A program made the position numbers and the translations under genes. Positions 43,167 through 59,183 of a stretch of 64,000 bases of DNA are shown one piece after another (position 1 is the stretch's first letter; the number at the start of each line of letters is the position of its first letter). Below the pieces are notes generated by a model. It made no database searches and was not told the DNA's origin. It saw only the letters and a list, made by a program, of their open reading frames with translations. Source of the stretch: Pseudomonadota bacterium (GTDB taxonomy: Bacteria > Pseudomonadota > Gammaproteobacteria > Steroidobacterales > JBCBZW01); contig JBCCWS010000033.1 of assembly GCA_039193195.1 (NCBI GenBank), positions 1 to 64,000 of the forward strand, written 5' to 3'.

Positions 43167-43970
43167 TTAGGCCTGTAGGGTCTGGTAGATGAGCTGCTTC
43201 ACCGTGTCAGCCTCGAAGGGCTTGTCGCACACCGCGGAGACGCCGGACTGCTGGATCGCCGACAGCCGTGAGGTGTTGCTCTCACTGGTCACCATGAGAA
43301 TCGGCGTGTCGCTATCGCCGATCTCATCTCGGATGCAATTCGTGAGTTCCAAGCCATCCATCTCGGGCATGTTGTAGTCCGTGACGATCAGATCGAACTC
43401 GCGATGGTAGAGCATCGTAGCCGCTTCCCTTCCGTCCTTCGCGAACTCCAAGTTGCCGATCCCAAGGGACTTCAGCACCTTGGCAATGTGCAGGCGCGCG
43501 TAGGCAACGTCGTCCACGACGAGCACGCGAAGACTGGCGGGATCACCGTACTCGAGATCCATCTCATCAGGGTTCAGAAAATGCAGGGTGTTGAGCAATG
43601 CTCGGCGAATGGCAGGCGCCGTGAACGGCTTGGGCAGGATGGCGATGACGCCGGCCTGGCGGATCGGATCGAGTCGCTTGAAGCGCTCCTCGCTAGAGAC
43701 CAGCATGAACGGGGTGTCGCACAAGTCATCGGAGTCGCGCAGGGTGACGATCAAGTCTGTGGCCGTCATATCCGGGAGGTACATCGAACTGATGACGAGG
43801 CGAAAGCTGCCAGAACGCAGCTTCTGCAGAGCCTCGGCACCGGAGTGGGCCTCTTGAATGTCATCAATATCGTTGGTTTCGAGGTGGCGGCGCATGGCCG
43901 CGCGCTGGGCGCCCGATGGCTCGACGACGAGTACGCTCAGATCCTCTAGGTGCAACTGAATGGTGGACAC
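43167..43970 (-). CDS. Tandem receiver-domain protein with one inactive receiver
   Basis: 267 residues, two CheY-like domains and no output domain. In the first (10-130) the acidic pocket reads VVEPSG and the phosphoacceptor position is Ser (ISSMYLPDM), so it cannot be phosphorylated normally; K114 remains. The second (147-267) is canonical: VVDD, D198 in VTDYNMPEMDG, T/S228-229 and K250. AGGAGA precedes the GTG start. It is inserted between nusB and thiL in an otherwise standard operon. Protein-protein output is the likely mode. Confidence 0.85.
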   Translation of the reverse strand: MSTIQLHLEDLSVLVVEPSGAQRAAMRRHLETNDIDDIQEAHSGAEALQKLRSGSFRLVISSMYLPDMTATDLIVTLRDSDDLCDTPFMLVSSEERFKRLDPIRQAGVIAILPKPFTAPAIRRALLNTLHFLNPDEMDLEYGDPASLRVLVVDDVAYARLHIAKVLKSLGIGNLEFAKDGREAATMLYHREFDLIVTDYNMPEMDGLELTNCIRDEIGDSDTPILMVTSESNTSRLSAIQQSGVSAVCDKPFEADTVKQLIYQTLQA

Positions 43971-44067
43971 GTGTTCTCCTTAGGTCGTCGGGCTCTCCTA
44001 AGGGGTTATCGTCCCTGCGCCGAAGGACTGAAGTGTCGCGCCGGAGGATCCGGAAACCGTGCGCCGG

Positions 44068-44571
44068 TTAACGGGCGCGCTCGACCTTGCGCAGCGTGAG
44101 CGATGCCTTGTCCAATACGGCGTTGACGAACTTGTGGCCGTCCTCTGCGCCGAATTCGTGGGCGAGTTCCAAGGCCTCGTTCAACACCACACGGTACGGC
44201 GTTTCAATCCGTTCACGCAGCTCGTAAAGGCCGATCAGCAGCACCGCGTGCTCGATCGGGTCGAGCTGATCGACCGGTCGGTCGGAGCGCTCTGCGATCA
44301 GTGCGTCGAGGGCCTCGCGGTGGGTCTCCACGCCCATGATCAGCTGGCGAAAGAGCTCTTGATCCACCCGCTCCAGCCCCGGGAAATCCGTGAACTGGGC
44401 GATCACGTTGCGCGCGTGGTCGCCGGTGAGGAACTGCTGGTAAAGCGCCTGGCATGCGGCGCGGCGCGCCAAAGAGCGGGCGCTGGCGCGGCGCTTTCGC
44501 GGGCGCCGGGCCGGGGATGCCGTCGCGCCGTCGGCAGCGGTGTCGACCGGTGATGAGGGGTCCTCGCCCAT
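44068..44571 (-). CDS. nusB: Transcription antitermination factor NusB
   Basis: Binds boxA RNA with NusE during rRNA antitermination. 167 residues from the ATG at 44571 (MGEDPSSPVDTAADG); another ATG at 44583 overlaps ribH by 8 bp. The core is RRAACQALYQQFLTG, IERSDRPVDQLDPIEHAVL-like helices and PYRVVLNEALELAHEFG. A basic, low-complexity N-terminal extension of about 30 residues precedes the fold. Confidence 0.93.
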   Translation of the reverse strand: MGEDPSSPVDTAADGATASPARRPRKRRASARSLARRAACQALYQQFLTGDHARNVIAQFTDFPGLERVDQELFRQLIMGVETHREALDALIAERSDRPVDQLDPIEHAVLLIGLYELRERIETPYRVVLNEALELAHEFGAEDGHKFVNAVLDKASLTLRKVERAR

Positions 44572-44575
44572 CCGC

Positions 44576-45058
44576 TCAAGCATCCAGCTGGCGCAGCAGC
44601 CCCAGCGTCTCCAAGGCTGCCAGGGACGCCTCCGCCCCCTTGTTGCCCGCCTTGGCGCCGGCACGTTCGATCGCCTGATCTAAGGTGTCGACCGTGAGCA
44701 CACCAAACCCCACCGGCACACCAGTGTCGAGGGCGACACGCGACAAGCCGCTCGCACATTCCCCTGCCACGTAGTCGAAGTGCGGGGTGGCGCCGCGAAT
44801 CACCGTGCCGAGGGCGACGAGCATATGGAAGCGACCGCTGCGCGCTGCCTTGCTGGCAGCGATCGGCAGCTCGTACGCACCCGGCACCATCAGCAGCTTG
44901 ATGTCGCCACTGGCCACGCCGGCTTGCGTGAGTGCTCCAACGGCCCCGCGAGTGAGCCGCTCGACGATAAAGTCGTTCCAACGGGTGGCGAGCACACCCA
45001 CGCGCACGCCAGTGCCACTAAGGGCGCCTTCCAAGGTCTCGATCGTCGGCCCGTTCAT
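44576..45058 (-). CDS. ribH: 6,7-dimethyl-8-ribityllumazine synthase
   Basis: Penultimate riboflavin step: joins the ribitylaminouracil with 3,4-dihydroxybutanone phosphate. 160 residues. Motifs are ATRWNDFIVERLTRGA, VPGAYELPIAA, ALGTVIRGATPHFDYVAGE and PVGFGVLTVDTLDQA. The ATG overlaps the ribBA stop (ATGA). Confidence 0.96.
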   Translation of the reverse strand: MNGPTIETLEGALSGTGVRVGVLATRWNDFIVERLTRGAVGALTQAGVASGDIKLLMVPGAYELPIAASKAARSGRFHMLVALGTVIRGATPHFDYVAGECASGLSRVALDTGVPVGFGVLTVDTLDQAIERAGAKAGNKGAEASLAALETLGLLRQLDA

Positions 45059-46200
45059 TCGTCCACGTACTCCACCACTTCCAGCCCGAAGCCAGACAGG
45101 CCATGCATGCGCTTGGGCGCGCTCAGCACACGCATGCGCGCGACGCCGAGATCACGCAACACCTGAGCGCCGACGCCGTACTTGCGCAGCTCCGAGCTCA
45201 CCTCGCCACTGCCTTGATGCGGCCGCTCGCTACCCTGCAGGCGCTCGATCAATACCCTTGGATCATCGCGCTCGCGCAGTATCAGGACCACTCCACTGCC
45301 TTCCTCGGCAATGCGCTTCATGGCCGATCGCAGGGGCCACCCCAAAGATGGCCAGGTAACGCCAACGACGTCACTCAGCGTCTCGTGCACGTGTACGCGA
45401 ACCAGCGTGGGGTCCGTCGCTCCCACTTTGCCCCTGACCAAAGCGAGGTGAACGTTGCGCGCCACATGATCTTCATAGCAATGCAGCGTGAAGTCACCAA
45501 ATTCTGTAGGTACGGTACGGGTGGCGATACACTCCACCGACTGCTCATTGCGCAGGCGGTAGGCGATAAGGTCGGCGATGGTGCCGATCTTCAGCTTGTG
45601 CTCGCGAGCAAAGGCCTCGAGATCCGGGCGCCGTGCCATGCTCCCATCCTCACGCAGCACCTCCACGATCACTGCCGCCGGTTCCGCACCGGCGAGGCGC
45701 GCCAGATCACAGCCGGCTTCCGTGTGGCCGGCTCGGGTCAGCACGCCGCCGGGCTGGGCCATGAGCGGAAAGATGTGGCCAGGTTGGGTGAGGTCCGCGG
45801 GGCCCGCATCGGGCGCCACCGCCGCGAGCACCGTGCGGGCTCGGTCGTGGGCGGAGATGCCGGTGGTCACCCCCTCGGCGGCCTCGATAGAGACGGTGAA
45901 GTTGGTGCGTTGCTCCGAATCGGTCTCGCTCACCATCAGGGGCAGGCGCAGCTGCTCGCAGCGCTCGCGGGTGAGGGTCAGGCAGATCAGGCCACGGCCG
46001 TATCGCGCCATGAAATTGATGTCTTCCGGGCGTACGTGGGAGGCGAGCATCACCAGGTCGCCCTCGTTTTCGCGATCCTCGTCGTCGAGCATCACCACCA
46101 TGCGGCCCGCGCGTAGCTCCGCCAGGATGGTCTCGATGTCCGCCAAGTCGTTGGAACTGCCCCGTTCTGGCAGGGGGGTGATGTTGCTGCTATCTGTCAT
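45055..46200 (-). CDS. ribBA: 3,4-dihydroxy-2-butanone 4-phosphate synthase with degenerate GTP cyclohydrolase II-like domain
   Basis: 381 residues. The N-terminal RibB domain (about 15-220) is intact: VVMLDDEDRENEGDLVM, MARYGRGLICL and the C-terminal GHTEAGCDLARLAG. The C-terminal RibA-like domain has lost the three zinc cysteines of cyclohydrolase II (in RibA, CxxGD...RCDC). The same place reads RVHVHETLSDVVGVTWPS and contains no Cys. It therefore supplies only the butanone phosphate; a separate RibA must exist elsewhere. This matches the proteobacterial RibB-plus-inactive-RibA arrangement (RibBX type). Confidence 0.92.
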   Translation of the reverse strand: MTDSSNITPLPERGSSNDLADIETILAELRAGRMVVMLDDEDRENEGDLVMLASHVRPEDINFMARYGRGLICLTLTRERCEQLRLPLMVSETDSEQRTNFTVSIEAAEGVTTGISAHDRARTVLAAVAPDAGPADLTQPGHIFPLMAQPGGVLTRAGHTEAGCDLARLAGAEPAAVIVEVLREDGSMARRPDLEAFAREHKLKIGTIADLIAYRLRNEQSVECIATRTVPTEFGDFTLHCYEDHVARNVHLALVRGKVGATDPTLVRVHVHETLSDVVGVTWPSLGWPLRSAMKRIAEEGSGVVLILRERDDPRVLIERLQGSERPHQGSGEVSSELRKYGVGAQVLRDLGVARMRVLSAPKRMHGLSGFGLEVVEYVDE

Positions 46201-46279
46201 GGCCGTGCCGTGCTCGTTTTATCCGTATCGCCCTATTCTACTGCGCTGCGGCCGGGGGTGCCGGCTGCGCCACGGCGAT

Positions 46280-46885
46280 TCAATCGCCGCTGCTGGCAGC
46301 CAGCTGGCGGGCGACGTAGCGGGCCAGCACGTCTGCTTCGAGATTGACGCGGCGCTCCGTAGCGTACTGGGCCATGGCCGTCACCTCCCACGTGTGGGGG
46401 ATGATGTTCACGCCGAAGGCCTCTGCCTCTACCTCGTTGACTGTCAAGCTGATCCCATCCACGCAGACCGACCCCTTTGGCGCCACCAGCGGCGCGAGAC
46501 TAGGCGGCAGGGAGATGCGCAGGCGCTGGGAGCGGGCCTCAGGGGTGATCGACAGCACCACGGCAATAGCATCCACGTGACCAGTGACTAGATGGCCGCC
46601 GAGCACATCGCCAGCCCGCAGCGAAGGCTCCAAATTGACCAGAGCCCCAGCAGTCAGGTCGCCCAAGGTGGTTTTTTCGAGGGTCTCGCGGGAGACGTCG
46701 AAGGCGAGGCGCAGGCCGTCCATCTGCACGACCGTCAGGCAAGCCCCGCTAATCGAGATGCTGTCGCCGAGGCCGATGGGCGTCGGGGGCGCCCAGCCGT
46801 CCGCATCGATCGTGAGCCGCGCATCGCCGCCCACTCCCTCCAGGGCCACCACGCGGGCGGTCGCTTGAACCAGTCCAGTAAACAT
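46280..46885 (-). CDS. ribE: Riboflavin synthase alpha subunit
   Basis: Dismutates two lumazines to riboflavin. 201 residues, two homologous beta-barrels. Each half has its motif: MFTGLVQATARV with SGACLTVV and VNLEPSLRAGDVLGGHLVTGHVD in the first, and KGSVCVDGISLTVNEVE with NIIPHTWEVTAM in the second. Named ribC in some genera. It lies between ribD and ribBA on the same strand. Confidence 0.96.
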   Translation of the reverse strand: MFTGLVQATARVVALEGVGGDARLTIDADGWAPPTPIGLGDSISISGACLTVVQMDGLRLAFDVSRETLEKTTLGDLTAGALVNLEPSLRAGDVLGGHLVTGHVDAIAVVLSITPEARSQRLRISLPPSLAPLVAPKGSVCVDGISLTVNEVEAEAFGVNIIPHTWEVTAMAQYATERRVNLEADVLARYVARQLAASSGD

Positions 46886-46913
46886 CGCGTTGCCTTTTCA
46901 GCCTTCTTTAACC

Positions 46914-48041
46914 CTACGCTAGAGGCGTGGCCACAACCCGCAGGTCTTCGCCAATACGATCGACCTGGCGCCACTGCAGGCGGATGCGCTCATCCATGCG
47001 CGAGAGCCCTGGCACGTTCCAAGCGCCCAGCGTCTGCGTGCCCATGAGGTGAGGCGCCAAGTAGCAGATGACCTCGTCCACCAGACCAGCCCCCAGCAGG
47101 GACCCGTTCAGGCGCGCGCCGGCCTCCACCATGACCTCGTTGATGCCGCGCCTTCCAAGTTCGTCCAGCACGGCGGACAGATTCAGTCCCACGCCATCTG
47201 CGTGCGTCGGCGCGGGCACCAGCTCCACCCCTTCGCGCTCCGCAAGTGCCGCCGGCAGCTCCTGCGCGAGGCCTGCCTGGTGGATGAGCAGGGTGCGGCC
47301 CTGGTCGTTGAGCAGGGCCGCCCGGGGCGGGGTGCGAAGCTGCGGATCGATCACCACGCGCAGGGGGTGGTGCCAAGGCGCGACGGGCGAGGCGTCGCGA
47401 ACGGTGAAGGAAGGATCGTCCGCGACCACGGTGCCAACCCCGGTGAGGATCGCGCCGACGTTCGCCCGACGTCGGTGCACGTCGCGGCGCGACGGCACAC
47501 TGGAGATCCATCGGCTCTCTCCATCGCGCATGGCCGTTGCGCCATCCAGGCTCGTCGCCACCTTGACGGTAACGAAGGGCCGACCTCGCTCGAGGCGACT
47601 TAGAAAGCCGCGTGCCACGCGCCTGGCCTCTTCCGCCATCAAGCCAACGCTCACCTCGATACCGGCCGCACGCAGTTGCTCGATCCCAGCACCATCGACG
47701 CGAGGGTTCGGATCTTCGACCGCGACGACCACCCTAGCGATCCCTGCCTCAAGCAGCGCCTGACTGCAGGGGGGCGTGCGGCCATGGTGCGCGCAAGGTT
47801 CTAAGGTGACGTAGGCGGTGGCGCCGGTCAGCGCTTCGCCTAGGCCAGCCTCGCGCGCTGCGGCGATCGCCCTCACCTCCGCATGGCCCTCTCCCGCTTG
47901 AGCATGCCATCCCTCGCCGAGCACATCGCCCCCTGCATTCGCGATCACACAGCCCACGCGAGGGTTCGGCTCACAGGCATTGGTGCCACGTCTCGCCAGG
48001 CGTACGGCGGCGGCCATATGTTTCCTATCGGATACGTTCAC
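46914..48041 (-). CDS. ribD: Bifunctional riboflavin biosynthesis deaminase/reductase RibD
   Basis: Deaminates and then reduces the pyrimidine intermediate of riboflavin synthesis. 375 residues. The deaminase zinc site is GHAEVRAI with [11 protein letters not shown]; the reductase domain has [36 protein letters not shown] and [14 protein letters not shown]. The GTG start overlaps the nrdR stop (GTGA). Confidence 0.96.
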
Positions 48042-48601
48042 TGACGCGAGCGGCGCGTTCGGCGGCGGGTACCCGTAGCGGGCGTCACGGTGGCGCGAGA
48101 CGCATCTGGCAGCAGGGACATCTGCTCCTCGGCCTCGCCGGTCGGCTCATCTAAGGCTTCGAGCTTCTCGAGTTCCTCCCGGAACGCGGAGATGTCCTCG
48201 AAACTGCGGTACACGGAGGCGAAGCGCACGTAGGCCACCTGATCCATACGACGCAGTTCGTTCATCACCAGTTCGCCCACTAGGCGGGAGGGCACCTCGC
48301 GCTCTCCCGTGGCGAGCAGCGCGTGCTTGATGCGTTGGAGCGCATCCTCCACAGCGTCTTCACCGACGGGCCGCTTTTGCAGGGACATGCTGATGCCCCG
48401 ACGGAGCTTGGCCTCGTCGAAGGGCTGGCGCTTGCCATCGCTCTTGATGAGGTGGGGCATCACCAGCTGCGGCGCCTCGAAGGTGGTAAAGCGCTCCCCG
48501 CAGCGTGAGCAGACGCGGCGGCGGCGCACCTGGGAGCCTTCGCCCGCCAGGCGCGAATCGGTGACGCGGGTCTCCTCGTGACCGCAGAATGGACAGTGCA
48601 T
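48038..48601 (-). CDS. nrdR: Transcriptional repressor NrdR
   Basis: ATP/dATP-sensing repressor of ribonucleotide reductase genes. 187 residues from the ATG at 48601 ([17 protein letters not shown]). Zinc ribbon C3/C6 and C31/C34 ([12 protein letters not shown]), then an ATP-cone ([22 protein letters not shown]). It is about 35 residues longer than the E. coli protein owing to an Arg/Thr-rich tail. The nrdR-ribD link is conserved; glyA, often upstream, is absent and the TIR/SPFH operon lies there instead. Confidence 0.95.
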
Positions 48602-48890
48602 AGCTCGCCTCTTCGGGCGCAGAGCGCTCGGACGAGGCGTATTGTAACGCGTCGTTCGTAGGACCCGAACGTACCGACGGATGCGCGGCGGTTCCATGGG
48701 GCTCCACCTCCGCACAAACCGCGCCACGGCGGGCCACAATCTGATTCCGACGACTACGCCACGGAGGGCGCGACACAGGAAAGCGCGGACCCGTCCGCTG
48801 CCCCGCGCGAGCGATAGGAATAGCCAGGAGAGACCGCTTCTTCCACCTAGGGCGACCTCCCTGCACGTTGGGAACGAGTGTACATCCTGA
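48602..48890. other. Intergenic region upstream of nrdR
   Basis: 289 bp separate nrdR from the SPFH-like gene, both leftward. On the minus strand TACAAT at 48646-48641 could be a -10 box for the nrdR-rib operon, but the -35 is weak. No FMN riboswitch (RFN element) or intrinsic terminator was recognised. The boundary marks a change to DNA that looks less GC-rich by eye. Confidence 0.4.
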
Positions 48891-51239
48891 CTACGGCTTC
48901 CAATCAGGGTCTGCCCTGCCCTTGGTTCGCCTCGAGGGCAACGCAGGCAGCGCTGTGTCACCTCGCAAGCTACGAAGCGCCTGGGCCGCGGCCTCGTTGC
49001 TCCGATCGTGGTCATCATCGAACATGGATTCGAGATGATCGGTCCAGCGTTCAATTTGCTCGCTCAGCTTCTCAACCTCCGGATCGTCGATACCAAAGTC
49101 AGAGACACGCTGCCTTAGCCGGTCACGAGCGCCCTGCAGTGAGCTCATCGCATCCTGTATCTTCTGCTGATGCATCAAGGCCTGAACCTGCTGAATCGGT
49201 GATCGGGGACGATCGAAGGTGTAGCCCGACAAGGCCAGGCCTAGCTCCCTGGCGACCATTCCACTCGCCGCAACCCACAGCTCATCTTTCAACCCGTCCA
49301 CGATCTCGCGCGACGAGGCTGTAAGTACGGCCTGCGGATACTGCTTCAGCACTTCTCTCGCAGACGCCTCGACCATGGTGTCCACGGACCCCAAGATCCG
49401 CTCGGCGGCCTGTTGCAAATCCGAAGTGACCGGTGCGTCGTCCGTCGCTGCCGATTGATGTTCACCACCGACGCGAGCATTGCGGCAGGTTTCCTCAAAG
49501 CGCGACCATTCGTCAAAGGCAACACCTACAACACGGAAGGATACGGTGAACTTCAGATCCTCCCCCTTGCTGCCCGCCACATCCACCCCGATGCTCACCG
49601 AGCGAGGCTCGGGAGGGCAGAGCAGCGAATTGACTCGGCTCAAATCAGTCTCTTCCGGGCTCAGTTCGATGCTTCGAAGCGTCACCCCGAAGCGTGCTCC
49701 AAGAGCCGCCTCCACACGCTTGGAGATCACATCCACGGGCGAGGGCTGACCTTCCACCTCCTGCATCGGTTCATCGAAATGCAGGTGCAGGGGTTCAGGG
49801 TTCAGCTGGCGAATCGCACTCGCTAGCTCTTCCTTGGTGGTCTGCTCCATCTGCTTGGCCAAGTATCCACCCGGGCGCAGGAATCTGGCGACATCGCCAA
49901 GGTCATCACCGAGCTCCACCCGAACGATCGCGCTAACACCAAAATCGACCCGCCCATCGCGAGTCTTGAATCTATTCGCTTCCACGGAGAACGTCAGTTC
50001 CCCGCTGAGAACCTCCTCCATGTCCTTATCGTTCGGCCGCGTAACAAAGTGCGCTACGCCAAATCCGATGCGTTCCAACTCCGTCGACACACGCTCCTTG
50101 ATTCGACCCTTGAGACTGTCGAAGTCTACGAGCACCTCTGCGTACATTCTCTCGAGCAGCACCGACTTCGTCTTGCGGCGCAGGATGTCCTCGACCTGCT
50201 CTCGGAGATCCTCGACGCGAGAGGCGCGGTACTTAGCCACATCTTGGCGCTCGAGGATCACCGTGTGGTGTATCTCCAGCCGCGTCGGTCCTGGCTGCAC
50301 CTCGCATGGAATCGCGAACTCGTGCTCCAACTTGAACTCCGTGTCAAAGGGAACGCGAAGCTCGAGGCGGAAGCGGCGAACTTCTAGACCTAGCGTTTTG
50401 GATAGGCGCTCTGACACTGACGCCTCTAAGAGACGTCGCACTCGGACGCGTTCGTAGCAGTACATCTCGAGTGAGCAAGAGCCTTTGAACCAACTGACAA
50501 CGAAGTCAGCAACCAGCTGTTTCAGGCGCGACGGTGACGTCGCCAACTGAGGGCCCTCCGCGCTGGATGGATCCGAGCCGAGCGCCATACTGAGTCCGAC
50601 ACTCAGATCATCCTCCGCGTCAGAGACGATCACGGACAGCTCGTCGATAACGATTTCCGGTACCACGAAGTCTGCGGAAGGCACCGACATGCTGACGTCC
50701 ACCAGCAGCCCGAACTCCCCTTCTAGGTGACTCGCTATCGCCTCCGTACACTGCTCTCGAGCCGCCTTGACCTCACTCGCATCGCCCACGGCGAACTGAG
50801 CGACCACGTCCTGCTTCTGCATCAGATTGTCGCGCACAAAGTCCCAAAACGCGTTCCCGACCGCTTCGACGATCACGTCAAAGGGATGGCGCGCGCGCGC
50901 CATCTTCTCCACGAAGCCCAGCTCGTGCCCGCTTCGCAAATCTGTGATTCTAAGGAAGACCTCGATGTTGTAGGTGGTTCCAGCGGCATCTCGAACTTCC
51001 CGAAGCAGGATCGGGTCGCACACTACGGCGCCGTGCGTACGCAGCTCGAAATAGCTCAGGTTCGTCGGCCACCCGATAAACCTGCGAGCAGGTTTCGCTA
51101 CTCCGGAGTCCGTCAAAGCAAAGTACTGAGCATCGGTTCGCGCACGGTAGTCCGCCGGTGGCTCACCGATTCGTTTGAAGAACCTCTCGAAGCGCCTACC
51201 GTACGCACCGCCGCCGTTTGGTTTCCCACTTCCGTCCAT
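48891..51239 (-). CDS. Soluble protein with about five tandem SPFH/band-7-like repeats
   Basis: 782 residues, no signal peptide and no transmembrane helix. I read about five repeats (60-189, 198-297, 303-402, 414-527, 545-678). Each has beta strands, a helical stretch of charged Arg/Glu residues, and a closing G-(L/F)-x-V strand: [67 protein letters not shown]. This is the pattern of SPFH domains, which scaffold membranes as stomatin or flotillin do. The C-terminus (685-760) is a helical coiled coil. It is the last gene of a four-gene operon, 16 bp after the previous stop. Assignment rests on pattern, not on a search. Confidence 0.6.
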
Positions 51240-51255
51240 GTCGCACCTACCTAGT

Positions 51256-53511
51256 TCAACGATTGTCGTGCAAGATTCGCTTCAACTTTTCCCTGGACCG
51301 CAGGCGCTGGCGCACGCGTTCCAGCTCGTCCGGAGGGAGCTCGCTTGCGATCGGTCCCCTGGACATCCATGACGCCAGCGCGGCGAGATCATCCCGCTCG
51401 CTCTTACCAAGCCGTTTGGCCAGCTTGGCCACAAGCTCGACGGCCAGGTCAGGGAAGTCTTCCAACCAGGTCGCCAGCAGATCGACCAAGGCAAAGTGGC
51501 ACATCGAGCCTTGAGGAAGTCCAGCGTTGAACCGACTGACGAACGCGCGGTTGCCGTGCTCCAGGACCCACGTCACCGCCTCGAGGAATCGCTTGTGCGA
51601 AAGCCAGTTGACCAGCAGCGACAAGTGCTCTTCAGTCACAGGGGCAACCGCCCAGCGCTGACGGTCATAGCGTCGCGTGTCATCCCCTTGTGCGACGTTG
51701 GTGAGCAGTTCTCGCGCCGCGCTTGCCACTAGCGGAAGCGCAAGCCCCCAACGCTGCGAGCCCGATAGGGGCGCGTCCTGATCCTCGGGGGGGAACCAAC
51801 TCGAGATAGTCTCGAGCACGGAGAGCGCCTCGGGATTGTCTGCAATAAAATGGCTGCACATCGACAGGGCCGCCCCTTCGCACAAACCACGGCTTGCCAC
51901 GTCGAACACATGCCGGTAGTGCTGTAGGGCATCGAATTGCTGAGCAAAACCGAGACGCGACAGGAGATTGACGCTCAAATGCGCGTGGGTTTTGTGGGTC
52001 GCAAGCCGTTTCAGTACCGCGTCCACCACCTGGGCAGTCTCTTGGTGGCGGAGCATCGCCCGAAACCAGGAGCTCAGCCGGTCGATCTGCAGCGACTGAC
52101 CGAGATCTAGGCTCGCAACCTGCGCAAATGCCCAGCCGGAATCGAGCCGCTGCGGAAAGCGAACCATCAGCTGGGCACACATCGACGACAGTGAGTGGAC
52201 GCTGCTTGAGCGCATGCTCGGGCTTAGGAGTGTCGGGAGGTCGAAGAGCGTCTCGAACGCCCGTAGCGTGTACCGGACGCCCAGGCTCTCTCGAACAGCC
52301 ACCTCCATCTCGGGTTCCACGAACTGCAGCCGGGGCGGGCGCCCAACGTAGGCCAACCCGAGTGAGTTTAGGATGTGCTCTTCTTTGTCTTGCCAATGCT
52401 CGAGCGCGGGGACACGGTTTACGCGCACACCGATCGGGCCTTGCTGAACGGAACTCCCGTCTACGAGCGCGTCGATGAGCTCCGTCGCATCCTCGGCGGC
52501 GAAGTCTGGCAGGTAGGCCGCGACGAAGAGCACGGCTCTATCCACTGCGTTCGCGTCCCTAAGCAAGGCGATTGCCTGCGACGCCGATCCTGCATCGGCT
52601 CGGGCGCCCAGATCGAGCTCGCCAGGGTATCGGCCGTTGGTTCGAATGAACCTCTCGAGCCTTCTGCAGACCTCGTGGTCAGCGGCGCCGCCGCCCCATG
52701 CATTTCGAAGCAAGCTCTGGGTCTCATCAAGCTCTGTGCTGTCACAGCCTGCCTCTGCCAAAAGGCCGGATACGCAATCGATGATCCAACAACATCCATG
52801 GAATCGTTCGACTAGCGGTCGCGCATAGGTAGTGGCCGATCCTGCGACTAGGAAGATCACGCCAACGTTGTGTTCGACCCACCAACCCTCGGGCGCCACG
52901 CGGAACAGCTCATCGATGCAGGCATCGTCGCGGATCCGCACCACGAGCAGCATGTCGTGCCCACCGCCGACGCCCGTGGTCGTCGCACTGCCAAGGAGGC
53001 CGAACTTGGCCTGTTGATTTAGGTATGCGGACAGGTTGCCTACGTTGCTGGTATCGATATCCCAACAACGCGCCTGGCGTCCTCTCTGCTCCTCTGCATT
53101 GGCTGCGGCGATTGCGGCGGCGGAGCCGATCGGCTCATGGCTTGCCACAATCAGCAGCACGCCCTTGTCCCTAAGCGTTCGCTGATAGTCTCTTGCTAAG
53201 CCGGTGACGAAGCTGAAATCCCGCTCGTCCACAGCGACCCTCTCCAACGGGCGCGTGGGATCACCATCTATCCGATGTGCCGAAGCATCCAGCGACGGTT
53301 CGTTAGAGGGCCTCTCGCCGAGAAGCTCGTACCAGGGCGTGGCACCGTGTAACTCGGTGGTATCGGGCACAGCAGCATCGTTTGCGCCATGCTCGCCAGT
53401 CGAGGCCTGGGTTGGGGTCTCCTCCGACGGCGCCGCTTCTGGGGACTGCTCGAGCGTCGGCGACTCGGACAAGGCCTCGCTGGCGGTATCTTGCTCGACT
53501 TCAGATGTCAT
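51256..53511 (-). CDS. Large protein with a degenerate P-loop-like domain and helical-repeat C-terminus
   Basis: 751 residues, no membrane segment. Residues 1-95 are acidic and disordered. At 117-135 the strand-loop-helix VLLIVASHEPIGSAAAIA sits where a P-loop NTPase has GxxGxGKT, but the Lys and Thr are replaced by Ala. Later strands HDMLLVVRIRDD and NVGVIFLVAGSAT resemble Walker B and sensor strands. Residues 400-750 look like all-helical repeats (LSRLGFAQQFDALQHYRHVFD). This suggests a pseudo-ATPase of the STAND/AAA type acting as an adaptor. Its ATG overlaps the TIR gene stop (ATGA). Family not recognised. Confidence 0.6.
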   Translation of the reverse strand: MTSEVEQDTASEALSESPTLEQSPEAAPSEETPTQASTGEHGANDAAVPDTTELHGATPWYELLGERPSNEPSLDASAHRIDGDPTRPLERVAVDERDFSFVTGLARDYQRTLRDKGVLLIVASHEPIGSAAAIAAANAEEQRGRQARCWDIDTSNVGNLSAYLNQQAKFGLLGSATTTGVGGGHDMLLVVRIRDDACIDELFRVAPEGWWVEHNVGVIFLVAGSATTYARPLVERFHGCCWIIDCVSGLLAEAGCDSTELDETQSLLRNAWGGGAADHEVCRRLERFIRTNGRYPGELDLGARADAGSASQAIALLRDANAVDRAVLFVAAYLPDFAAEDATELIDALVDGSSVQQGPIGVRVNRVPALEHWQDKEEHILNSLGLAYVGRPPRLQFVEPEMEVAVRESLGVRYTLRAFETLFDLPTLLSPSMRSSSVHSLSSMCAQLMVRFPQRLDSGWAFAQVASLDLGQSLQIDRLSSWFRAMLRHQETAQVVDAVLKRLATHKTHAHLSVNLLSRLGFAQQFDALQHYRHVFDVASRGLCEGAALSMCSHFIADNPEALSVLETISSWFPPEDQDAPLSGSQRWGLALPLVASAARELLTNVAQGDDTRRYDRQRWAVAPVTEEHLSLLVNWLSHKRFLEAVTWVLEHGNRAFVSRFNAGLPQGSMCHFALVDLLATWLEDFPDLAVELVAKLAKRLGKSERDDLAALASWMSRGPIASELPPDELERVRQRLRSREKLKRILHDNR

Positions 53512-54509
53512 CTTGTGTCCATCGGTGTTGGCAGAAATTCCTGGCGGGTGCTTCCCTGATCGGCAGTACCCACGATGTAACCGGCGGGGTCGAAGATGGG
53601 AGCTCCCTCGACGTACAGCGTGCTACCGCCGTCCAGATCTACAGGGCTTGCCCAGCGCTCGAGCGTAAAGCTGGCGAATGACACTGGATGCCCCTTTTCG
53701 GTTCCCCACCCCACCGTGCCCAGCGGACTACCCAGGCAAGCAAGCTCGGCGTCCATTCGGTATGCCAACACGCGGGGAAAGCGCCACGGTTGTCGAATTC
53801 TGAGCCGTGCGAGCCTCTGCGATTCATCTGCCTCGACAACCCGCACGTAGGTCTCGCCGGCATCGGGTGGAATCCTAGAGACCCTCACCTCGCCCCCCTT
53901 GGAGAGTTCACCTTGGATCTCTGCGGCGGTGCGCTGACTACACGCGAGGGCGTCACCTCCGTCGTGCCAGGCGAGGCCGAGGTGGCCGGAGAGGTCTCCT
54001 TCCACGAGGACCGTGCCAGCACACACTGCGTCGTAGGCGGCGCGAAGATCTCCCGCCGACGCACTCGCCAGGGGACGGAGGATCTCCTTCTTCGTTGCCT
54101 TGAACGCCCGCGCGAAGGCGTCGTCCTCGTTCAAGTGCCTGCAGTCTACGAAGTTCAAGGAGCGGTAGAAGTGGGGCAGCCGCTCTTCGTTGGCGGTATC
54201 GAACACCGTTCGAGCGTAGAGCAGTATCTTCCGCTTGCCCCAGTTGTAGGCATTGGCGACCTCACGAGATGTATCGTCGGACAGGAAGAAGTCCGGAGTG
54301 ATCACGAAAACGACACAGGCCGCTTGACGCAGCGCTGCGGAGTATCCAGTCACCACTTCCGCTCCGGACTCGATGCCATCGGTACTCTCAGAGAAGTTGT
54401 TATACACACTCAGACCATTGGCGATCAGGTACGTCGCCAAGCCGCGAACCCAAGCACGGTCCGCGCTGCGATAGCTGATGAATACATCTACGCTGCCCAT
54501 CGGTGCCAC
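53508..54509 (-). CDS. TIR domain fused to a catalytically dead trypsin-like domain
   Basis: 333 residues. TIR domain (5-145): VDVFISYRSADRAWVRGLA, a central strand CVVFVITPDFF, and SREVANAY with E83 at the place of the catalytic Glu of NAD-cleaving TIRs. Residues 155-320 follow the layout of a trypsin-like protease: GLAWHDGGDALACSQ, RLARLRIRQPW, LACLGSPLG, VEGAPIFDPAGYIVG. The catalytic His, Asp and Ser positions read Gln/Arg, Arg and Glu, so it should not cleave peptides and may be a sensor. The start is GTG next to the upstream stop, or ATG at 54500. It is coupled to the 751-residue gene by ATGA. Confidence 0.78.
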   Translation of the reverse strand: MAPMGSVDVFISYRSADRAWVRGLATYLIANGLSVYNNFSESTDGIESGAEVVTGYSAALRQAACVVFVITPDFFLSDDTSREVANAYNWGKRKILLYARTVFDTANEERLPHFYRSLNFVDCRHLNEDDAFARAFKATKKEILRPLASASAGDLRAAYDAVCAGTVLVEGDLSGHLGLAWHDGGDALACSQRTAAEIQGELSKGGEVRVSRIPPDAGETYVRVVEADESQRLARLRIRQPWRFPRVLAYRMDAELACLGSPLGTVGWGTEKGHPVSFASFTLERWASPVDLDGGSTLYVEGAPIFDPAGYIVGTADQGSTRQEFLPTPMDTR

Positions 54510-56168
54510 TCAGTCCTGATCGGCAAACATGCGCTCGAGCTCTTCGTCAGATCGCTGATAGCGCGCGTCCGGTGGCGCCGTCACTGCGCCTGGAAAGCCG
54601 AGTTGCTGCGCGGGCAAGGTGACGTCGTGCACGCCGCTGATCATGCGCAGCAAGGACGCCTCATCGCGAAGATCCAGGGTGCCGGCGGTCCGGGGATCGG
54701 GCACTCCCTTGGAGCGAGCGCTGACCCACGCTGCGGCCGCGGCAGGATAGTCGCGAGCCATTGCCAAGGCGTTCTCTCTGGCCACAGACTCTTGCACGTG
54801 GACAACGGCATCGTGCAATCCTCCCTTCATCATCACCTTGGCAATGAGGGGAATCAGATCGAGAGTGAAGATCACACCGAACACCAACACGCACTGCATC
54901 AACACGGCACCACGAGTCGCCGCCGACTCGCTTGAGAATGCCAAGTGGTACATCGCGACCACTTGCTGCAAGAAACCCGGTTTACCCTCGGGGCCAGCGG
55001 AGGACGCGGCGCGCAGGGGAAAGGCGCGCTCGAGATCCGCACGATCAGCCTCGTAGCGCTGATCAAGCTCCTCCAGGGCCTGCTCTACGGCCGCGAGACT
55101 GCTCTGATCGGCCGCAGTCTTGGTGTCGATTTGCTGTGATAGCTGCGCAAGATACTCTTGACGCCGGGTGGATTTCGCGGCGGCACTGGCGCGCTGACGT
55201 TCAGCACTGACGGAGTTCCACTGCGCAGTTGTCGCTTCCAGCTGCTGGCGAGCTTCGGACTCGAGCTGTTGAGTCTGCGCAGCGCGGCCGCGTAGCTGCG
55301 CCGTTCTGACGCCCGGACCTCTCCCCAACGTGCGGTCCTGGAACTCGTTGATGAACTCATGCGACTCCCCGTCCTCATCGGCTTGAGCTGCCTTCTCGTA
55401 GCGCTCGCGCAGCGCTTCCAGCTCGAGCACACGTCTCTGCTGTTGATCCGCCTGCGATGCAAGCTGGACCTCCTCTGTGGCCAACGCTTGAAGTGCCGAG
55501 TCCGCCAACAGCAAGCGCGGCAGGATCTCAGACTCCCATGTTTTCGCCTGCTGAGAGACTTGCAGCTCACGCGGCACATAGGCGCTGGCTCGAAGCTCAT
55601 CCCGTCGTGTCTCCAGCACCTCGCGACGTTCCCTCGCGCGCGACTCGATCTGCGATCGGCGCTGATCGTAGGCGCCTCTAGTGGGCGCTAGGAGCTCTTG
55701 CTGCGAGGCGAGATGCTGGGTCGTGATGGCGGCGGAGAACAGATCCAAGCAAAACGGAAGCGCTATGGCGCTGCTCAAGAAGGTCGCCAGGAGTACGCGT
55801 AGGGCGATTTGTGGGAGTCTCCCGCGCAGAGGCTCCAAGGGGCGGTACGTGGCGATTAGGATTCGATTCACGCTCATGATGACGAGCCCCCAAGCTAAGG
55901 CCCATCCGAGCACACTCCAACGCGGCACCCCACTCCACTGATGCGTCACGTAGAAGAACATCGAGGCCACGGCCAAGAAGCTCGGCACCAAGATCGCAAA
56001 ACCCAGCACCTTTATGCGATCTTGCTCCGATTTTGGATAGCCCCGAACGCCGGTCTGGCTGGTGCCGCAAAGCCAGCACAGCAAGCCGCTCCACCAGGAT
56101 CGCTCAGTCGGGGCTGGGTCCGGCGACGCACCATGGAAGTCGTTCTCTTTCAATGAGGAGGAGTCCAT
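54510..56168 (-). CDS. DUF4407-like multi-pass membrane protein with long coiled coil
   Basis: 552 residues. Three transmembrane helices at about 53-78, 86-107 and 121-144, with the DUF4407-like pattern MSVNRILIATYRPL. A coiled coil rich in Gln/Glu/Arg spans about 150-395 (LETRRDELRASAY, LEQALEELDQRYEADR). A fourth membrane helix at about 425-450 (LMQCVLVFGVIFTLDLIPLI) and a cytoplasmic tail follow. It is the first gene of the operon, and the TIR gene follows with no gap. DUF4407 function is not established. It may anchor the TIR/SPFH complex to the membrane (inference). Confidence 0.72.
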   Translation of the reverse strand: MDSSSLKENDFHGASPDPAPTERSWWSGLLCWLCGTSQTGVRGYPKSEQDRIKVLGFAILVPSFLAVASMFFYVTHQWSGVPRWSVLGWALAWGLVIMSVNRILIATYRPLEPLRGRLPQIALRVLLATFLSSAIALPFCLDLFSAAITTQHLASQQELLAPTRGAYDQRRSQIESRARERREVLETRRDELRASAYVPRELQVSQQAKTWESEILPRLLLADSALQALATEEVQLASQADQQQRRVLELEALRERYEKAAQADEDGESHEFINEFQDRTLGRGPGVRTAQLRGRAAQTQQLESEARQQLEATTAQWNSVSAERQRASAAAKSTRRQEYLAQLSQQIDTKTAADQSSLAAVEQALEELDQRYEADRADLERAFPLRAASSAGPEGKPGFLQQVVAMYHLAFSSESAATRGAVLMQCVLVFGVIFTLDLIPLIAKVMMKGGLHDAVVHVQESVARENALAMARDYPAAAAAWVSARSKGVPDPRTAGTLDLRDEASLLRMISGVHDVTLPAQQLGFPGAVTAPPDARYQRSDEELERMFADQD

Positions 56169-56444
56169 CCCACCGCCTTGCTTTTCAGCGTTCCTGAGCC
56201 ATTGGGCTGATCGGGTCGCGGAGGGCCCTCGAGAGCTCAGAAGACTCAGGCTTGCCCACCGACACGTCTCCTACGTGCAGCGAGCGTCTGATTAGTCGCA
56301 CACCGCCCGGGGAAGGCCCGAAGACAGGCTCAGCTGAGCTCAGGGGTCATTCGCGCACACTTGCGAGCGCAGTCGCGCCGCGCCGAGCCCTCCTCGACGA
56401 GGGCCGCACTGAGGCTGCGCGATGATGCGTGGGGATGATGAAGC
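56169..56444. other. Intergenic region upstream of the TIR operon
   Basis: 276 bp between the tetR stop and the DUF4407 start, both leftward. It holds an inverted repeat CACGT-5-ACGTG (56263-56277) and overlapping palindromes GCTCAGCTGAGC (56328-56339) and CTGAGCTCAG (56334-56343). No good -10/-35 pair was seen. GGCGGTGGG acts as the ribosome binding site just before the DUF4407 ATG. The palindromes could be operators. Confidence 0.4.
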
Positions 56445-57062
56445 CTAGACAGCGGTCCGGACGATGCCGGCAAAGGCCAGCCGTGTTTGTTCCCGAATGG
56501 ACGCTGGAAGCTCCGCGTCGGCGACCAGCATCAGCAACGTGGTGAGCTGTGTGTCGACGTAGCGCCCGCCGATTTCAGGATCGATACCCTCGGCGAGGTC
56601 CCCGCGGCGCTGCGCCTCCTCCATCCACGCCGTCAACGCCGCGAGCTGCATCTCCCTCATGGAAGCGATCTGCGCACGTGACTGCGGGCCTAAGGGTTGC
56701 AAGGCCGTACGAGCCTTAGCGAACAGGCATCCCGCTGGAAGCGGGGTGTTCGGCGTGGCCAACCAATCGGCGAGCTTGCTCACGGCCTGCGCCAGAGACT
56801 GATCCTGGCAGAGCCTGGTGAGCAAAGGCTCGATCCGCACCTCGTAGTAGCGCGCGAGGACCACAGACAGCAGGCCATCTTCGCCTCCAAACTCGCGATA
56901 GAGGCTTGGTTTCGAGACACCGATCAGCTCGCACAGCTCATTCACCGAGAGCAGCCCCGGTCCGCTCTCCCACAAAAGCGTCATCGCACTGTCGACAACG
57001 CGCGCGCGGTCCAGGGTTTTTGGCCTGCCTCGGCCGCGTTTGCCACCCGTACTTGCCGTCAC
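56445..57062 (-). CDS. TetR/AcrR-family transcriptional regulator
   Basis: 205 residues. N-terminal HTH (8-62): GRGRPKTLDRARVVDSAM, LSVNELCELIGVSKPSLYREF. The C-terminal ligand domain is typical of the TetR_C_16/YxaF-like groups and is Ala/Leu-rich. The start is GTG with GAGGGA upstream. Divergent from doxX; the shared 124-bp gap contains two inverted repeats, so it probably represses itself and doxX. The inducer is unknown. Confidence 0.9.
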   Translation of the reverse strand: MTASTGGKRGRGRPKTLDRARVVDSAMTLLWESGPGLLSVNELCELIGVSKPSLYREFGGEDGLLSVVLARYYEVRIEPLLTRLCQDQSLAQAVSKLADWLATPNTPLPAGCLFAKARTALQPLGPQSRAQIASMREMQLAALTAWMEEAQRRGDLAEGIDPEIGGRYVDTQLTTLLMLVADAELPASIREQTRLAFAGIVRTAV

Positions 57063-57086
57063 CGAGGTCCCTCAGATCTGATCTAC

Positions 57087-57114
57087 GAATATCGTACCTC
57101 ATGGTTCAATATTC
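57087..57114. promoter_or_regulatory. Candidate TetR operator 1 (imperfect inverted repeat)
   Basis: Arms GAATATCGTACC and GGTTCAATATTC around a 4-base centre; 10 of 12 positions are complementary. It lies 25 bp upstream of the tetR start and covers the -35 region of the doxX promoter. Confidence 0.5.
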
Positions 57115-57133
57115 GAGCTAAACTGTTTATATT
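57105..57133 (+). promoter_or_regulatory. Candidate sigma-70 promoter for doxX
   Basis: TTCAAT (57105-57110), a 17-base spacer and TATATT (57128-57133), 54 bp upstream of the doxX ATG and flanked by both inverted repeats. Confidence 0.5.
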
Positions 57134-57135
57134 AA

Positions 57136-57149
57136 GTACCGTTCGGTAC
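57136..57149. promoter_or_regulatory. Candidate TetR operator 2 (perfect palindrome arms)
   Basis: GTACCG-TT-CGGTAC, with perfectly complementary 6-base arms, directly after the doxX -10 box, at or near the transcription start. Binding here would block doxX transcription. The ACC/GGT core is shared with operator 1. Confidence 0.6.
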
Positions 57150-57186
57150 GAAAATTTCCCGGCGATGACTTGGATGACCCAATCCC

Positions 57187-57612
57187 ATGCTTGCAGAACA
57201 TCAGCTCCCCAATCATGAAGCTCTCACGCTTCTCGCCCGCATTTTGTTCACACTGCTGTTCATCCTGTCGGGCGTTACCCACTTTTCCAACGTGCCCAGC
57301 TACGTCGGCCTCATGCACGAGTCGATCCCATACCGAGAGTTTTGGGTACTTGTCTCCGGCGCCGTCGAGCTCGCCGGGGCGGGGATGATCCTCTTCAATT
57401 GGCGGCCGCGCCTTGGCGCCTGGCTGATCATCATCTTCCTGATACCGGTGACCATCGTCGTTCACGGCTACGAGATGCTCCACGCCGAAGGGGAGGCAAT
57501 GCGCATCGTGCAGCGGGCATCCTTCTACAAGGGAATCGCTCTTATGGGCGCGGCCCTGATGGTCACACAGCTCGGGGTCACCCATCGCGCTGCCAAGCCG
57601 TCGACGGGCTGA
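57187..57612 (+). CDS. DoxX-family membrane protein
   Basis: 141 residues, four membrane helices. Typical DoxX elements are LLARILFTLLFILSGVTHFSN, the second helix VSGAVELAGAGMILFNW and a third, LGAWLIIIFLIPVTIVVHGY. DoxX-like proteins are linked to thiosulfate or quinone oxidation and to oxidative or electrophile stress, often under TetR control as here. The substrate is unknown. Confidence 0.87.
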   Translation: MLAEHQLPNHEALTLLARILFTLLFILSGVTHFSNVPSYVGLMHESIPYREFWVLVSGAVELAGAGMILFNWRPRLGAWLIIIFLIPVTIVVHGYEMLHAEGEAMRIVQRASFYKGIALMGAALMVTQLGVTHRAAKPSTG

Positions 57613-57695
57613 GTCCAAGGCACCTTGCCAACCCTCGCGACGGGCGTGACACTTGAGCACCGAGCTTGCCGGACAGCCCAAGAGGTACGTCTTAC

Positions 57696-59183
57696 GTGTT
57701 GCGCACCGTCCTATTTTTCCTGCCCTTAGTCGCCGCCACGGCGCGAGCGGACTACGACTACTTCGCCGCCAATCGCACGCTAATTCGCAACGGCGTGCAG
57801 GCCGTGCTCACGTGCAACGGGCTGTTCACCTCGCAACGCAGTCTGCAGCAAGTGTTCGCCCAGGAGCTCGCCTACCTCGGCGATAGGCGTCTTGGCGACG
57901 CGCAGGGCGGCCCCTACGACATTCACCTTCAAGAGCGAGCCGTCACGGTGGGCGGGCAGGCGCACGGCCCGGCCATCACCGCCGCCTTCCGCGAGGGCGT
58001 CGGCTGTGTGGTCATGGCACCTGGGATGGGCTTGGACGACATCCACGAACTCCCTGAACTGCCCCTGCCCTACCCCAGCGATGACCCAGGCACCACGCCG
58101 TGGCCGCAGGGCGATCTGATCAGCGAACCCCTGTCATCTGATGCCGATGTGGATGCGCAAGCCCTAGCGGCATCGGCGACGTGGGCCTTCGATCGCGACA
58201 GCGACGAGCAAGACACGATCAGCCTGCTGGTCGTGCACCGAGGTCGGCTCATCCTAGAGCGCTACGCAGAGGGCTTCGACCGCACCACGCGAACACGCAC
58301 CTGGTCGACGGCGAAGAGCATCGCCGTGACCCTAATCGGCATGCAGGTAGACGCCGGTGCCATGTCGCTCGATGGGAGCTTGGGCCTTGAGTGGCTGCCT
58401 CGTATTCCCGAGCCAAAGACGCTAGTCACGGCGCCGGCACCGGATCCCCGCCAAGCGATCACCCTGCGTCACGTATTGAATATGTCGAGTGGCCTGGACC
58501 CGGTAGACAGCTACGGCAGGGAGTACGCCACCGGCTCGGGCCTTGCGTACTGGGCGGGGGCTAGCTCTGTCGAGGGCATGCGCGAGCGCGGCCTGATACG
58601 TGCGCCAGGCACCCATTGGGACTACGAAAACTACGATACGCTCCTCGCCGTCTACAGCTTCAAGCGCAGCCTGCCGGACGAGCAAAGCTACCACGATTTT
58701 CCGCGCCTTCGCCTACTGGATAAGCTAGGTATGCGCAATACGTTGCTCTCAGTCGATCGCTTTGGCGACTTTATCCTCAGCAGCCAGGTGTACACCAACG
58801 CCCGAGATCTCGCCCGCTTTGGCTTGCTCTATCTGCAGGGCGGTGTTTGGGAGGGGGAGCGCCTGCTCTCCTCCGCGTGGATCGACTTCGTACGTACACC
58901 AGCCCCAGCCGCTGCAGTACGCGGCAACGACTACGGCGGGCAGTGGTGGTTGGTCCCCGACAATCGCAAGGGTGAGGTGCCGGCCGATGCCTACAGCACG
59001 GCAGGCAACCGCGGCCAGTACGTGATCGTGGTGCCAAGCCACGACCTGGTGATCGTCCGCCGCGGACTGGACTTCGGGCGCCAGGGCTTTGATCGCTGGA
59101 GCCTCACCCGCGAGGTGCTGAAGGCGATTCCGGCGGCAACCGTCCAGCGAGCAACCGCCGCCCCAACGCTCGGAGAACCGTGA
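57696..59183 (+). CDS. Exported serine hydrolase, beta-lactamase class C-like fold
   Basis: About 495 residues from the GTG at 57696 (VLRTVLFFLPLVAATARAD, a signal peptide), with AGAGG upstream; an earlier TTG at 57666 is also in frame. Residues 20-150 form an N-terminal extension of unknown fold. The hydrolase domain has the SxxK nucleophile STAK (in TWSTAKSIAVTL), YEN as the Tyr motif and GNRGQYVIVVP near the end in place of KTG. It is closest in pattern to 6-aminohexanoate-dimer hydrolases and esterases of the AmpC superfamily rather than true AmpC. Confidence 0.83.
   Translation: MLRTVLFFLPLVAATARADYDYFAANRTLIRNGVQAVLTCNGLFTSQRSLQQVFAQELAYLGDRRLGDAQGGPYDIHLQERAVTVGGQAHGPAITAAFREGVGCVVMAPGMGLDDIHELPELPLPYPSDDPGTTPWPQGDLISEPLSSDADVDAQALAASATWAFDRDSDEQDTISLLVVHRGRLILERYAEGFDRTTRTRTWSTAKSIAVTLIGMQVDAGAMSLDGSLGLEWLPRIPEPKTLVTAPAPDPRQAITLRHVLNMSSGLDPVDSYGREYATGSGLAYWAGASSVEGMRERGLIRAPGTHWDYENYDTLLAVYSFKRSLPDEQSYHDFPRLRLLDKLGMRNTLLSVDRFGDFILSSQVYTNARDLARFGLLYLQGGVWEGERLLSSAWIDFVRTPAPAAAVRGNDYGGQWWLVPDNRKGEVPADAYSTAGNRGQYVIVVPSHDLVIVRRGLDFGRQGFDRWSLTREVLKAIPAATVQRATAAPTLGEP

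What the first reader, a model, noticed from the sequence alone, without database searches (positions are those of the whole stretch)
48891..56168. Four-gene operon: DUF4407 membrane protein, TIR-pseudoprotease, pseudo-P-loop protein and multi-SPFH protein
Seen: four leftward genes with gaps of 0, -4 and 16 bp between two housekeeping or regulatory neighbours, in DNA that looks less GC-rich by eye than the flanking rib genes. Known: TIR domains with a conserved Glu often cleave NAD or make signalling nucleotides in bacterial immunity; SPFH proteins scaffold membranes. Inference: a membrane-anchored TIR immune or stress system with a scaffold (SPFH), an anchor (DUF4407-like), an adaptor (pseudo-NTPase) and a sensor (dead protease). 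I know no named system with this set.
Basis: partly seen in the sequence, partly recalled or inferred. Interest (0 to 1): 0.92.

Follow-up and report, generated by a model that had tools for sequence, protein, structure and literature searches.

The report
Variable TIR–STAND–SPFH gene cassette
This bacterium carries a rare four-gene cassette, missing from its nearest available relative, that seems to join a probable NAD-cutting immune enzyme, a worn-down relative of immune switch proteins, a large scaffold protein and a membrane protein; it looks like an undescribed bacterial immune or stress device, but no function has been tested.

Summary
A is a DUF4407 membrane protein and B a TIR protein with the expected glutamate E83. 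C has no Pfam family; its weak model resembles STAND/AAA+ NTPases plus a helical solenoid, and Walker A is missing. D scores below the Band_7 cut-off, but its model holds about three successive SPFH-like folds and a coiled coil, without a TM segment. The 7.8-kb cassette is absent from the same site in the only same-genus genome held. C and D are a conserved pair: full-length relatives (~20% identity) lie side by side in four Magnetococcales MAGs, the same 4 of 48 genomes for each. Three of these four have a TIR gene beside the pair; three have a kinase-like TM protein instead of DUF4407. In two, C and its TIR partner share a short N-terminal motif, a third is inconclusive. The 'pseudoprotease' was not confirmed. 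My searches found no paper on this set. Best reading: an accessory TIR–inactive-STAND–SPFH system, probably immune, possibly envelope stress; a new variant of a known kind.

The parts
48653..56462 (.). Whole variable stretch: about 7.8 kb here against 83 bp in the same-genus genome G274
   Evidence: window 43001-48652 aligns to L047 4249-9922 (82%) and window 56463-59161 to L047 10006-12736 (76%); only chance-length repeats at the edges
54510..56168 (-). Gene A: DUF4407 membrane protein, four hydrophobic segments with a long helical stretch before the last
   Evidence: PF14362 95.4 bits, cut-off 31.3; hydrophobicity scan
53508..54509 (-). Gene B: TIR protein
   Evidence: PF13676 59.5 bits, cut-off 28
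54108..54485 (-). TIR domain of B, with Glu83
53511..54062 (-).
   Evidence: no Pfam match, no convincing PDB or genome match
51256..53511 (-). Gene C: inactive STAND-like protein
   Evidence: relatives beside D in four loci; fold matches; no Walker A
52597..53223 (-). C residues 97-305: AAA+/STAND-like region in a low-confidence model
51262..52281 (-). C residues 411-750: helical solenoid-like region in a low-confidence model
48891..51239 (-). Gene D: multi-SPFH-like scaffold protein
49641..50672 (-). D residues 190-533: three successive SPFH-like folds (190-297, 303-402, 405-533)
   Evidence: VIA-align Z 10.4 (FliL), 11.9 (prohibitin), 10.4 (archaeal stomatin)
48963..49199 (-). D residues 681-759: predicted coiled coil
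   Evidence: model helices 681-715 and 720-759

Best explanation
The cassette is an accessory conflict (immune) system of the TIR-plus-STAND kind with an added SPFH scaffold. Protein C, STAND-like but without the nucleotide-binding lysine, is the hub or sensor. Protein D, a soluble string of SPFH-like domains ending in a coiled coil, forms a large ring or dome. Protein A couples the assembly to the inner membrane. Protein B is the effector. On a trigger (a phage component or membrane disturbance) the C-D assembly clusters TIR domains, which cleave NAD+ or make a signalling nucleotide and stop the infected cell. Shown here: the genes, the conserved C-D pairing, the frequent TIR neighbour, the empty site, the conserved TIR glutamate and the missing Walker A. 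Inferred: the complex, its oligomer, the trigger, the NAD chemistry and the cell arrest.
For: C-D adjacent in 5 of 5 loci known here, window included; same 4 of 48 class genomes. TIR neighbour in 4 of 5 loci, glutamate invariant. Shared N-terminal motif between C and its own TIR in L030 (12 of 2000 shuffles as good) and L031 (0 of 2000). Patchy: 4 of 48 in the Magnetococcales class, none in 320 other genomes of the own class, empty site in a sister genome. C model nearest to SAMD9 and EfAvs5 among others. Matched motifs in hub and TIR effector, inactive STAND hubs and inactive trypsin effectors are described for bacterial conflict systems (passages).
Against: No functional data. No defence island seen. 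G301 has C-D without a TIR neighbour. TIR is convergent, not in the operon, in L031 and L033. The motif match is weak in L033 (161 of 2000, no better than a non-cognate window/L031 pair at 133 of 2000) and absent in the window; in L030 one of 20 shuffled motifs scored higher somewhere in the locus. Both models have low confidence (pLDDT 51 and 42). Gain versus loss of the cassette is not resolved.
Confidence: 0.5

Rival explanations
1. An envelope-stress or membrane-organising system: D is a flotillin-like scaffold, C an assembly hub, A or the kinase-like protein a membrane sensor, and the TIR adjusts NAD or serves only as an interaction module. No viral trigger is needed.
For: Three relatives sit beside a kinase-like TM gene and two lipoprotein-like genes, two also beside an S41-type peptidase (by eye); the kinase-like gene is in 3 of 48 genomes, all three with C-D beside it. 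PSP-related operons join band-7 proteins, AAA+ ATPases, TM proteins and lipoproteins (passages of PMC11237479).
Against: TIR beside 4 of 5 loci with its catalytic glutamate kept; rare and patchy, absent from the sister genome; the L030 locus lacks the kinase-like gene.
Confidence: 0.25
2. C-D is a functional pair, but A and B are loosely linked neighbours, so there is no four-part system.
For: The own genome has 38 TIR_2 matches, which raises the odds of a chance TIR; TIR is convergent in L031 and L033 and not beside C-D in G301; DUF4407 relative only here (where only up to 3 candidates a genome were scored).
Against: Gaps of 0 and -4 bp in the window; TIR beside the pair in 4 of 5 loci; shared motif in two loci.
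Confidence: 0.13

Closest known systems
iSTAND and related ternary conflict systems (Kaur et al. 2020, PMC7159879; 2021, PMC8195603; passages seen)
   Same: Inactive STAND hub; TIR or (often inactive) protease partners; shared N-terminal adaptor domains in hub and effector
   Different: No MoxR or vWA among the four genes; an SPFH-type scaffold and a TM protein instead; SPFH occurs in the 2020 paper only in its reference list
BASS-type bacterial NLR/effector amyloid signalling pairs (PMC7889193, PMC8086366; passages seen)
   Same: Short matched motif at the N-terminus of the NLR-like protein and in the effector, which can be TIR
   Different: Motif is at the N-terminus of the TIR protein; clear in two loci only, not in the window; no BASS profile was run
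AVAST type 5 (SIR2-STAND) and SAMD9
   Same: C model ranks EfAvs5 (E 2e-3) and SAMD9 (E 3.4e-4) among its best fold matches
   Different: Effector on a separate gene, no Walker A in C, SPFH partner
SPFH complexes (stomatin, prohibitin, flotillin, HflK/C)
   Same: SPFH-like folds followed by a coiled coil
   Different: More than two SPFH-like units likely, no TM segment, sequence under the Band_7 cut-off
RNA vault with TEP1 (PMC13174449, abstract and outline seen; PMC12624060, passages)
   Same: Membrane-free SPFH-family assembly associated with a TIR-like NADase; that TEP1 also has a NACHT domain is recalled
   Different: B matches TIR_2, not DUF4062; no cage shown; the row for the vault protein has rmsd 51.8 over 123 residues, so it is no true superposition
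Band-7/AAA+ operons of the PSP group (PMC11237479, passages)
   Same: Band-7 protein, AAA+-type protein, TM protein, lipoproteins
   Different: No PspA or CesT-type gene among A-D (PspA_IM30 only 10.2 bits on the coiled coil of D), TIR added

Membership tests
DUF4407 (PF14362), gene A | Score over the curated cut-off | tested here: met
   95.4 bits, cut-off 31.3
TIR (PF13676), gene B | Score over the curated cut-off and aligned catalytic glutamate | tested here: met
   59.5 bits, cut-off 28; E83 invariant in 4 of 4
TIR (PF13676), gene B | NADase or signalling-nucleotide activity | not testable with these tools
   needs an assay
SPFH / Band_7 (PF01145), gene D | Score over the curated cut-off | tested here: not met
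   15.6 bits for D, 20.1, 15.2 and 12.0 for three relatives, cut-off 23.6; the 12.0-bit stretch lies elsewhere in the protein
SPFH fold, gene D | SPFH-like fold in a model | tested here: inconclusive
   Z 11.9, 10.4 and 10.4 for three adjacent stretches, above unrelated rows at Z 8-9; Foldseek probability 1.00 but E 4e-3, uricase ranked first; pLDDT 51
Tandem array of five SPFH-like units, gene D | Internal repeats by sequence | tested here: inconclusive
   profile comparison supports one pair only, U1-U3, E 3e-4 at probability 40%; five units by pattern of the model
STAND / AAA+ NTPase, gene C | Walker A GxxxxGK[ST] | tested here: not met
   absent in 5 of 5 C proteins
STAND / AAA+ NTPase, gene C | AAA+/STAND fold in a model | tested here: inconclusive
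   Z 7.3-8.5, Foldseek SAMD9 E 3.4e-4 but also a nuclear pore protein E 5.1e-4; pLDDT 42
Trypsin-like pseudoprotease, B residues 150-333 | Detectable trypsin family or fold | tested here: inconclusive
   no Pfam match, no PDB sequence match of weight; fold not predicted
MoxR-vWA-iSTAND ternary system | MoxR and vWA genes in the operon | tested here: not met
   no such domain in A-D
Thoeris | ThsA partner and ThsB-type TIR | tested here: not met
   PADLOC shows only weak ThsB-like matches for B (best E 0.0041) and no ThsA match for A, C or D
BASS-type NLR/effector pair | Matched short motif in hub and effector | tested here: inconclusive
   cognate pairs L030 12/2000, L031 0/2000, L033 161/2000; L031 and L033 are close relatives; none in the window; second scan
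Vault-like cage | Closed or domed oligomer of D | not testable with these tools
   needs microscopy

The most novel reading that the evidence does not exclude
A bacterial counterpart of the vault-TEP1 particle: D, which has no TM segment, assembles into a closed or domed SPFH cage that holds an inactive-STAND hub and TIR NADases and reorganises on infection to activate them, with A tethering it to the membrane.
Probability: 0.1. Interest if true: 0.95.

Novelty: new variant of a known kind. Interest (0 to 1): 0.7.

Why it matters
SPFH proteins build large rings and domes whose roles in bacteria are poorly known, and TIR enzymes are thought to fire when clustered. A conserved pairing of a multi-SPFH-like protein with an inactive STAND-like hub, usually beside a TIR gene, would tie membrane scaffolds to bacterial cell-suicide immunity and offer a tractable way to ask how a scaffold controls a TIR enzyme. 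A recent report of a TIR-like NADase inside the SPFH-family vault (PMC13174449, abstract) makes that question timely.

Tried and rejected
Searches without a relative: C, B, D, A and two Magnetococcales D proteins by tblastn in plasmids; D in phages; C and the D alignment in viral contigs; C in 273 other genomes of the class; the D alignment in 320 others; D in the one same-genus genome. PDB sequence profiles of C and D: best E 0.5-0.6, chance. PHROGs and NCBIfam: nothing useful. The promoter and terminator scan was at chance level (0 and 7 found, 1.1 and 5.0 expected).

Limits: the genome searches score only a few candidates a genome (2, 3), so weak relatives can be missed. The genome-contig scan used one pattern, and the profile searches stayed within the phylum, so absence from other phyla is not shown.

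Set aside: 27 of 398 genomes matched D at E<=0.01. Five (own plus four) have frames of 796-838 aa; the other 22 were dropped as short local matches (20 on the coiled-coil end, residues 643-764, in frames of 148-231 aa; 2 of 67 and 76 residues in frames of 520 and 688). Only for those last two were neighbours listed. Insertion by an integrase: none among the four genes, and repeats at the edges only of chance length (up to 9 bp). The TIR of G301 as missing partner: it is on another contig, is a different TIR protein and showed no clear motif match to C (20 of 300 shuffles as good, in another region).

Papers: DUF4407 with TIR 0 papers; SPFH with TIR domain and antiphage 0; DUF4407 alone 3, unrelated by title; broader sets listed 20 of 43, 10 of 11, 10 of 86 and 1 of 1 papers, none on such a set by title and abstract start. 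The library holds open-licence papers only.

Correction: an earlier count said 33 TIR matches over the cut-off in the own genome; a recount gives 34 of 38.
Full report
What is there. Four minus-strand genes stand at 54510-56168 (A), 53508-54509 (B), 51256-53511 (C) and 48891-51239 (D), with gaps of 0, -4 and 16 bp, between a TetR-type regulator upstream and genes that I read by eye as nrdR and ribD downstream. A is a clear DUF4407 protein (95.4 bits, cut-off 31.3) and B a clear TIR_2 protein (59.5 bits, cut-off 28); C has no Pfam family; D shows Band_7 at 15.6 bits, under its cut-off of 23.6. PADLOC gives weak generic TIR matches for B, one chance-level match for A and none for C or D.

A variable cassette. 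In the only other genome of the genus (and family) held, G274, both sides of the cassette align to one place: window 43001-48652 to L047 4249-9922 (82%) and window 56463-59161 to L047 10006-12736 (76%). So 48653-56462, 7.8 kb, stands against 83 bp there, and D is absent from that genome. The four genes have GC3 of 0.695-0.72; nrdR, ribD and TetR have 0.762-0.81; three other ORFs of the window reach 0.67-0.69, so composition is only a hint. The edges share repeats only of chance length. With two genomes, gain here and loss in the sister cannot be told apart.

Relatives. D searched in 398 genomes of the phylum (own included) gave four other long relatives; 22 further short matches were set aside. 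All four are Magnetococcales MAGs, PEAO01000015, JADFZF010000001, JADGCQ010000054 and JAANAU010000001. Identity to D is 20-21% along the protein. In all four a gene with 18-20% identity to C lies directly upstream of D. Among the 48 genomes held of that class, D and C occur in the same four. This is the firmest part of the finding: C-D is a conserved pair. It was not found in 320 other genomes of the window's own class (D) or in 273 (C).

TIR partner. A TIR gene lies just upstream of C on the same strand in G411 (L030 11078-11800), and convergent just downstream of D in G395 and G295 (L031 15317-15847, L033 8304-8837). Pfam scores the L031 TIR at 111 bits and the L030 TIR at 26.8 bits, slightly under the cut-off of 28; the L033 TIR was not scanned but aligns with them. 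With the window, 4 of 5 C-D loci have a TIR neighbour. G301 has one TIR_2 match, on another contig. The glutamate E83 of B is invariant in the four partners.

Shared N-terminal motif. In the relatives C begins with a long low-complexity stretch and then a Gly/Asn/Gln-rich segment. In L030 it resembles the start of its own TIR protein (score 45, reached by 12 of 2000 shuffles), and in L031 likewise (score 51, 0 of 2000). In L033 the cognate score is weak (161 of 2000), no better than the non-cognate pair of window C with the L031 TIR (133 of 2000); the cross pair L031 C with L033 TIR reaches 7 of 2000, as expected for close relatives. Scanning whole loci, the TIR start is the second-best place of the motif in L030 and L031, though one of 20 shuffled motifs scored higher in L030; it is not detected in L033, and L032 has no second copy above shuffles. 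The window shows no such motif. Matched motifs in NLR-like hubs and TIR effectors are described for bacterial amyloid signalling (passages of PMC7889193) and for effector-associated domains (passages of PMC8195603). I treat it as suggestive.

Membrane partner. Three Magnetococcales loci have a divergent gene for a protein with one hydrophobic segment and, in L031, weak kinase similarity (Pkinase E 0.0085, under the cut-off; none in L032), followed by two genes that look like lipoproteins by eye. It occurs in 3 of 48 genomes of the class, all with C-D beside it. A has no relative at E<=1e-5 in 397 other genomes, with at most 3 candidates scored in each. A membrane partner may be an exchangeable part, or these may be separate genes.

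Folds. The model of D (five sequences, mean pLDDT 51) shows a recurrent hairpin-helices-strand pattern from about residue 62 to 675 and then a coiled coil. VIA-align sets residues 303-402 on prohibitin (Z 11.9, rmsd 2.3, 100 aligned), 405-533 on archaeal stomatin (Z 10.4, rmsd 3.4, 105) and 190-297 on FliL (Z 10.4, rmsd 3.0, 97); ribosomal and other unrelated chains reach 8-9 and the coiled coil 9-10.6. That FliL is SPFH-like is recalled. Foldseek gives stomatin SPFH chains probability 1.00 but E 4e-3, and ranks a uricase first. Three successive SPFH-like folds are likely, five possible; profile comparison supports only one pair of units. D and the two relatives scanned have no TM segment. The model of C is poorer (pLDDT 42): residues 97-305 match AAA+ chains, clamp-loader delta and NB-ARC domains, and 411-751 match HEAT-like solenoids, with Z up to 8.5, near the level of common arrangements. 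Foldseek's best are SAMD9 (E 3.4e-4), a nuclear pore protein (5.1e-4) and EfAvs5 (2e-3), with CED-4 and Dark at about 2e-2. No C protein has a Walker A motif (0 of 5). I call C inactive STAND-like with moderate confidence.

The pseudoprotease. Residues 150-333 of B match no Pfam family and no solved chain better than E 0.09; six partial matches in 397 other genomes at E 0.001-0.008, two of them with stops inside, are probably noise.

How it probably works. C has the layout of an NLR-type hub, and in two relatives its N-terminus appears matched to the TIR partner. D should oligomerise as SPFH proteins do (established for the family). TIR enzymes are generally switched on by clustering (established). 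The simplest model is a membrane-linked assembly of D and C that gathers TIR proteins after a trigger and stops the cell by NAD consumption or signalling. The missing Walker A suggests that C does not switch by nucleotide, so the trigger may act through D, A or the solenoid. Envelope stress is the main rival, because three relatives sit beside lipoprotein-like and TM genes and because band-7 operons of the PSP group combine similar parts (passages of PMC11237479).

What is known. My searches found no paper on this set (open-licence library only). The nearest kinds are iSTAND ternary systems, which need MoxR and vWA, absent here, and BASS-type NLR/effector pairs. The boldest reading is a bacterial vault-like cage with a TIR NADase, prompted by the report of a TIR-like NADase in the vault (abstract) and the description of the vault as an SPFH complex without membrane association (passage of PMC12624060).

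Verdict. The immune role is plausible and untested. Interest 0.7, best explanation 0.5.

Noticed in passing
own genome G000, whole assembly: 38 TIR_2 matches, 34 over the curated cut-off, in 6.7 Mb; two of them seem to lie in one protein. In the control only 4 of 14 well-known genomes have any match. A strikingly TIR-rich genome.
   Followed up: partly
L031 8549-10066, L032 12627-14162, L033 1532-3169: Kinase-like protein with one TM segment, found in 3 of 48 genomes of the class and each time beside C-D; by eye its kinase motifs look degraded, so perhaps a pseudokinase.
   Followed up: partly
window 40233-41603 and 60306-63209: Two Ser/Thr kinase genes, one with a cyclic-nucleotide-binding domain and one with TPR repeats; an unusual kinase load for 64 kb.
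   Followed up: no
L047 9923-10005 against window 48653-56462: Clean empty site in the sister genome without integrase or clear repeats; how the cassette came or went is unexplained.
   Followed up: partly
G301, L068 1486-2539: The only TIR_2 protein of this C-D-bearing genome is a different, longer TIR protein on another contig.
   Followed up: partly
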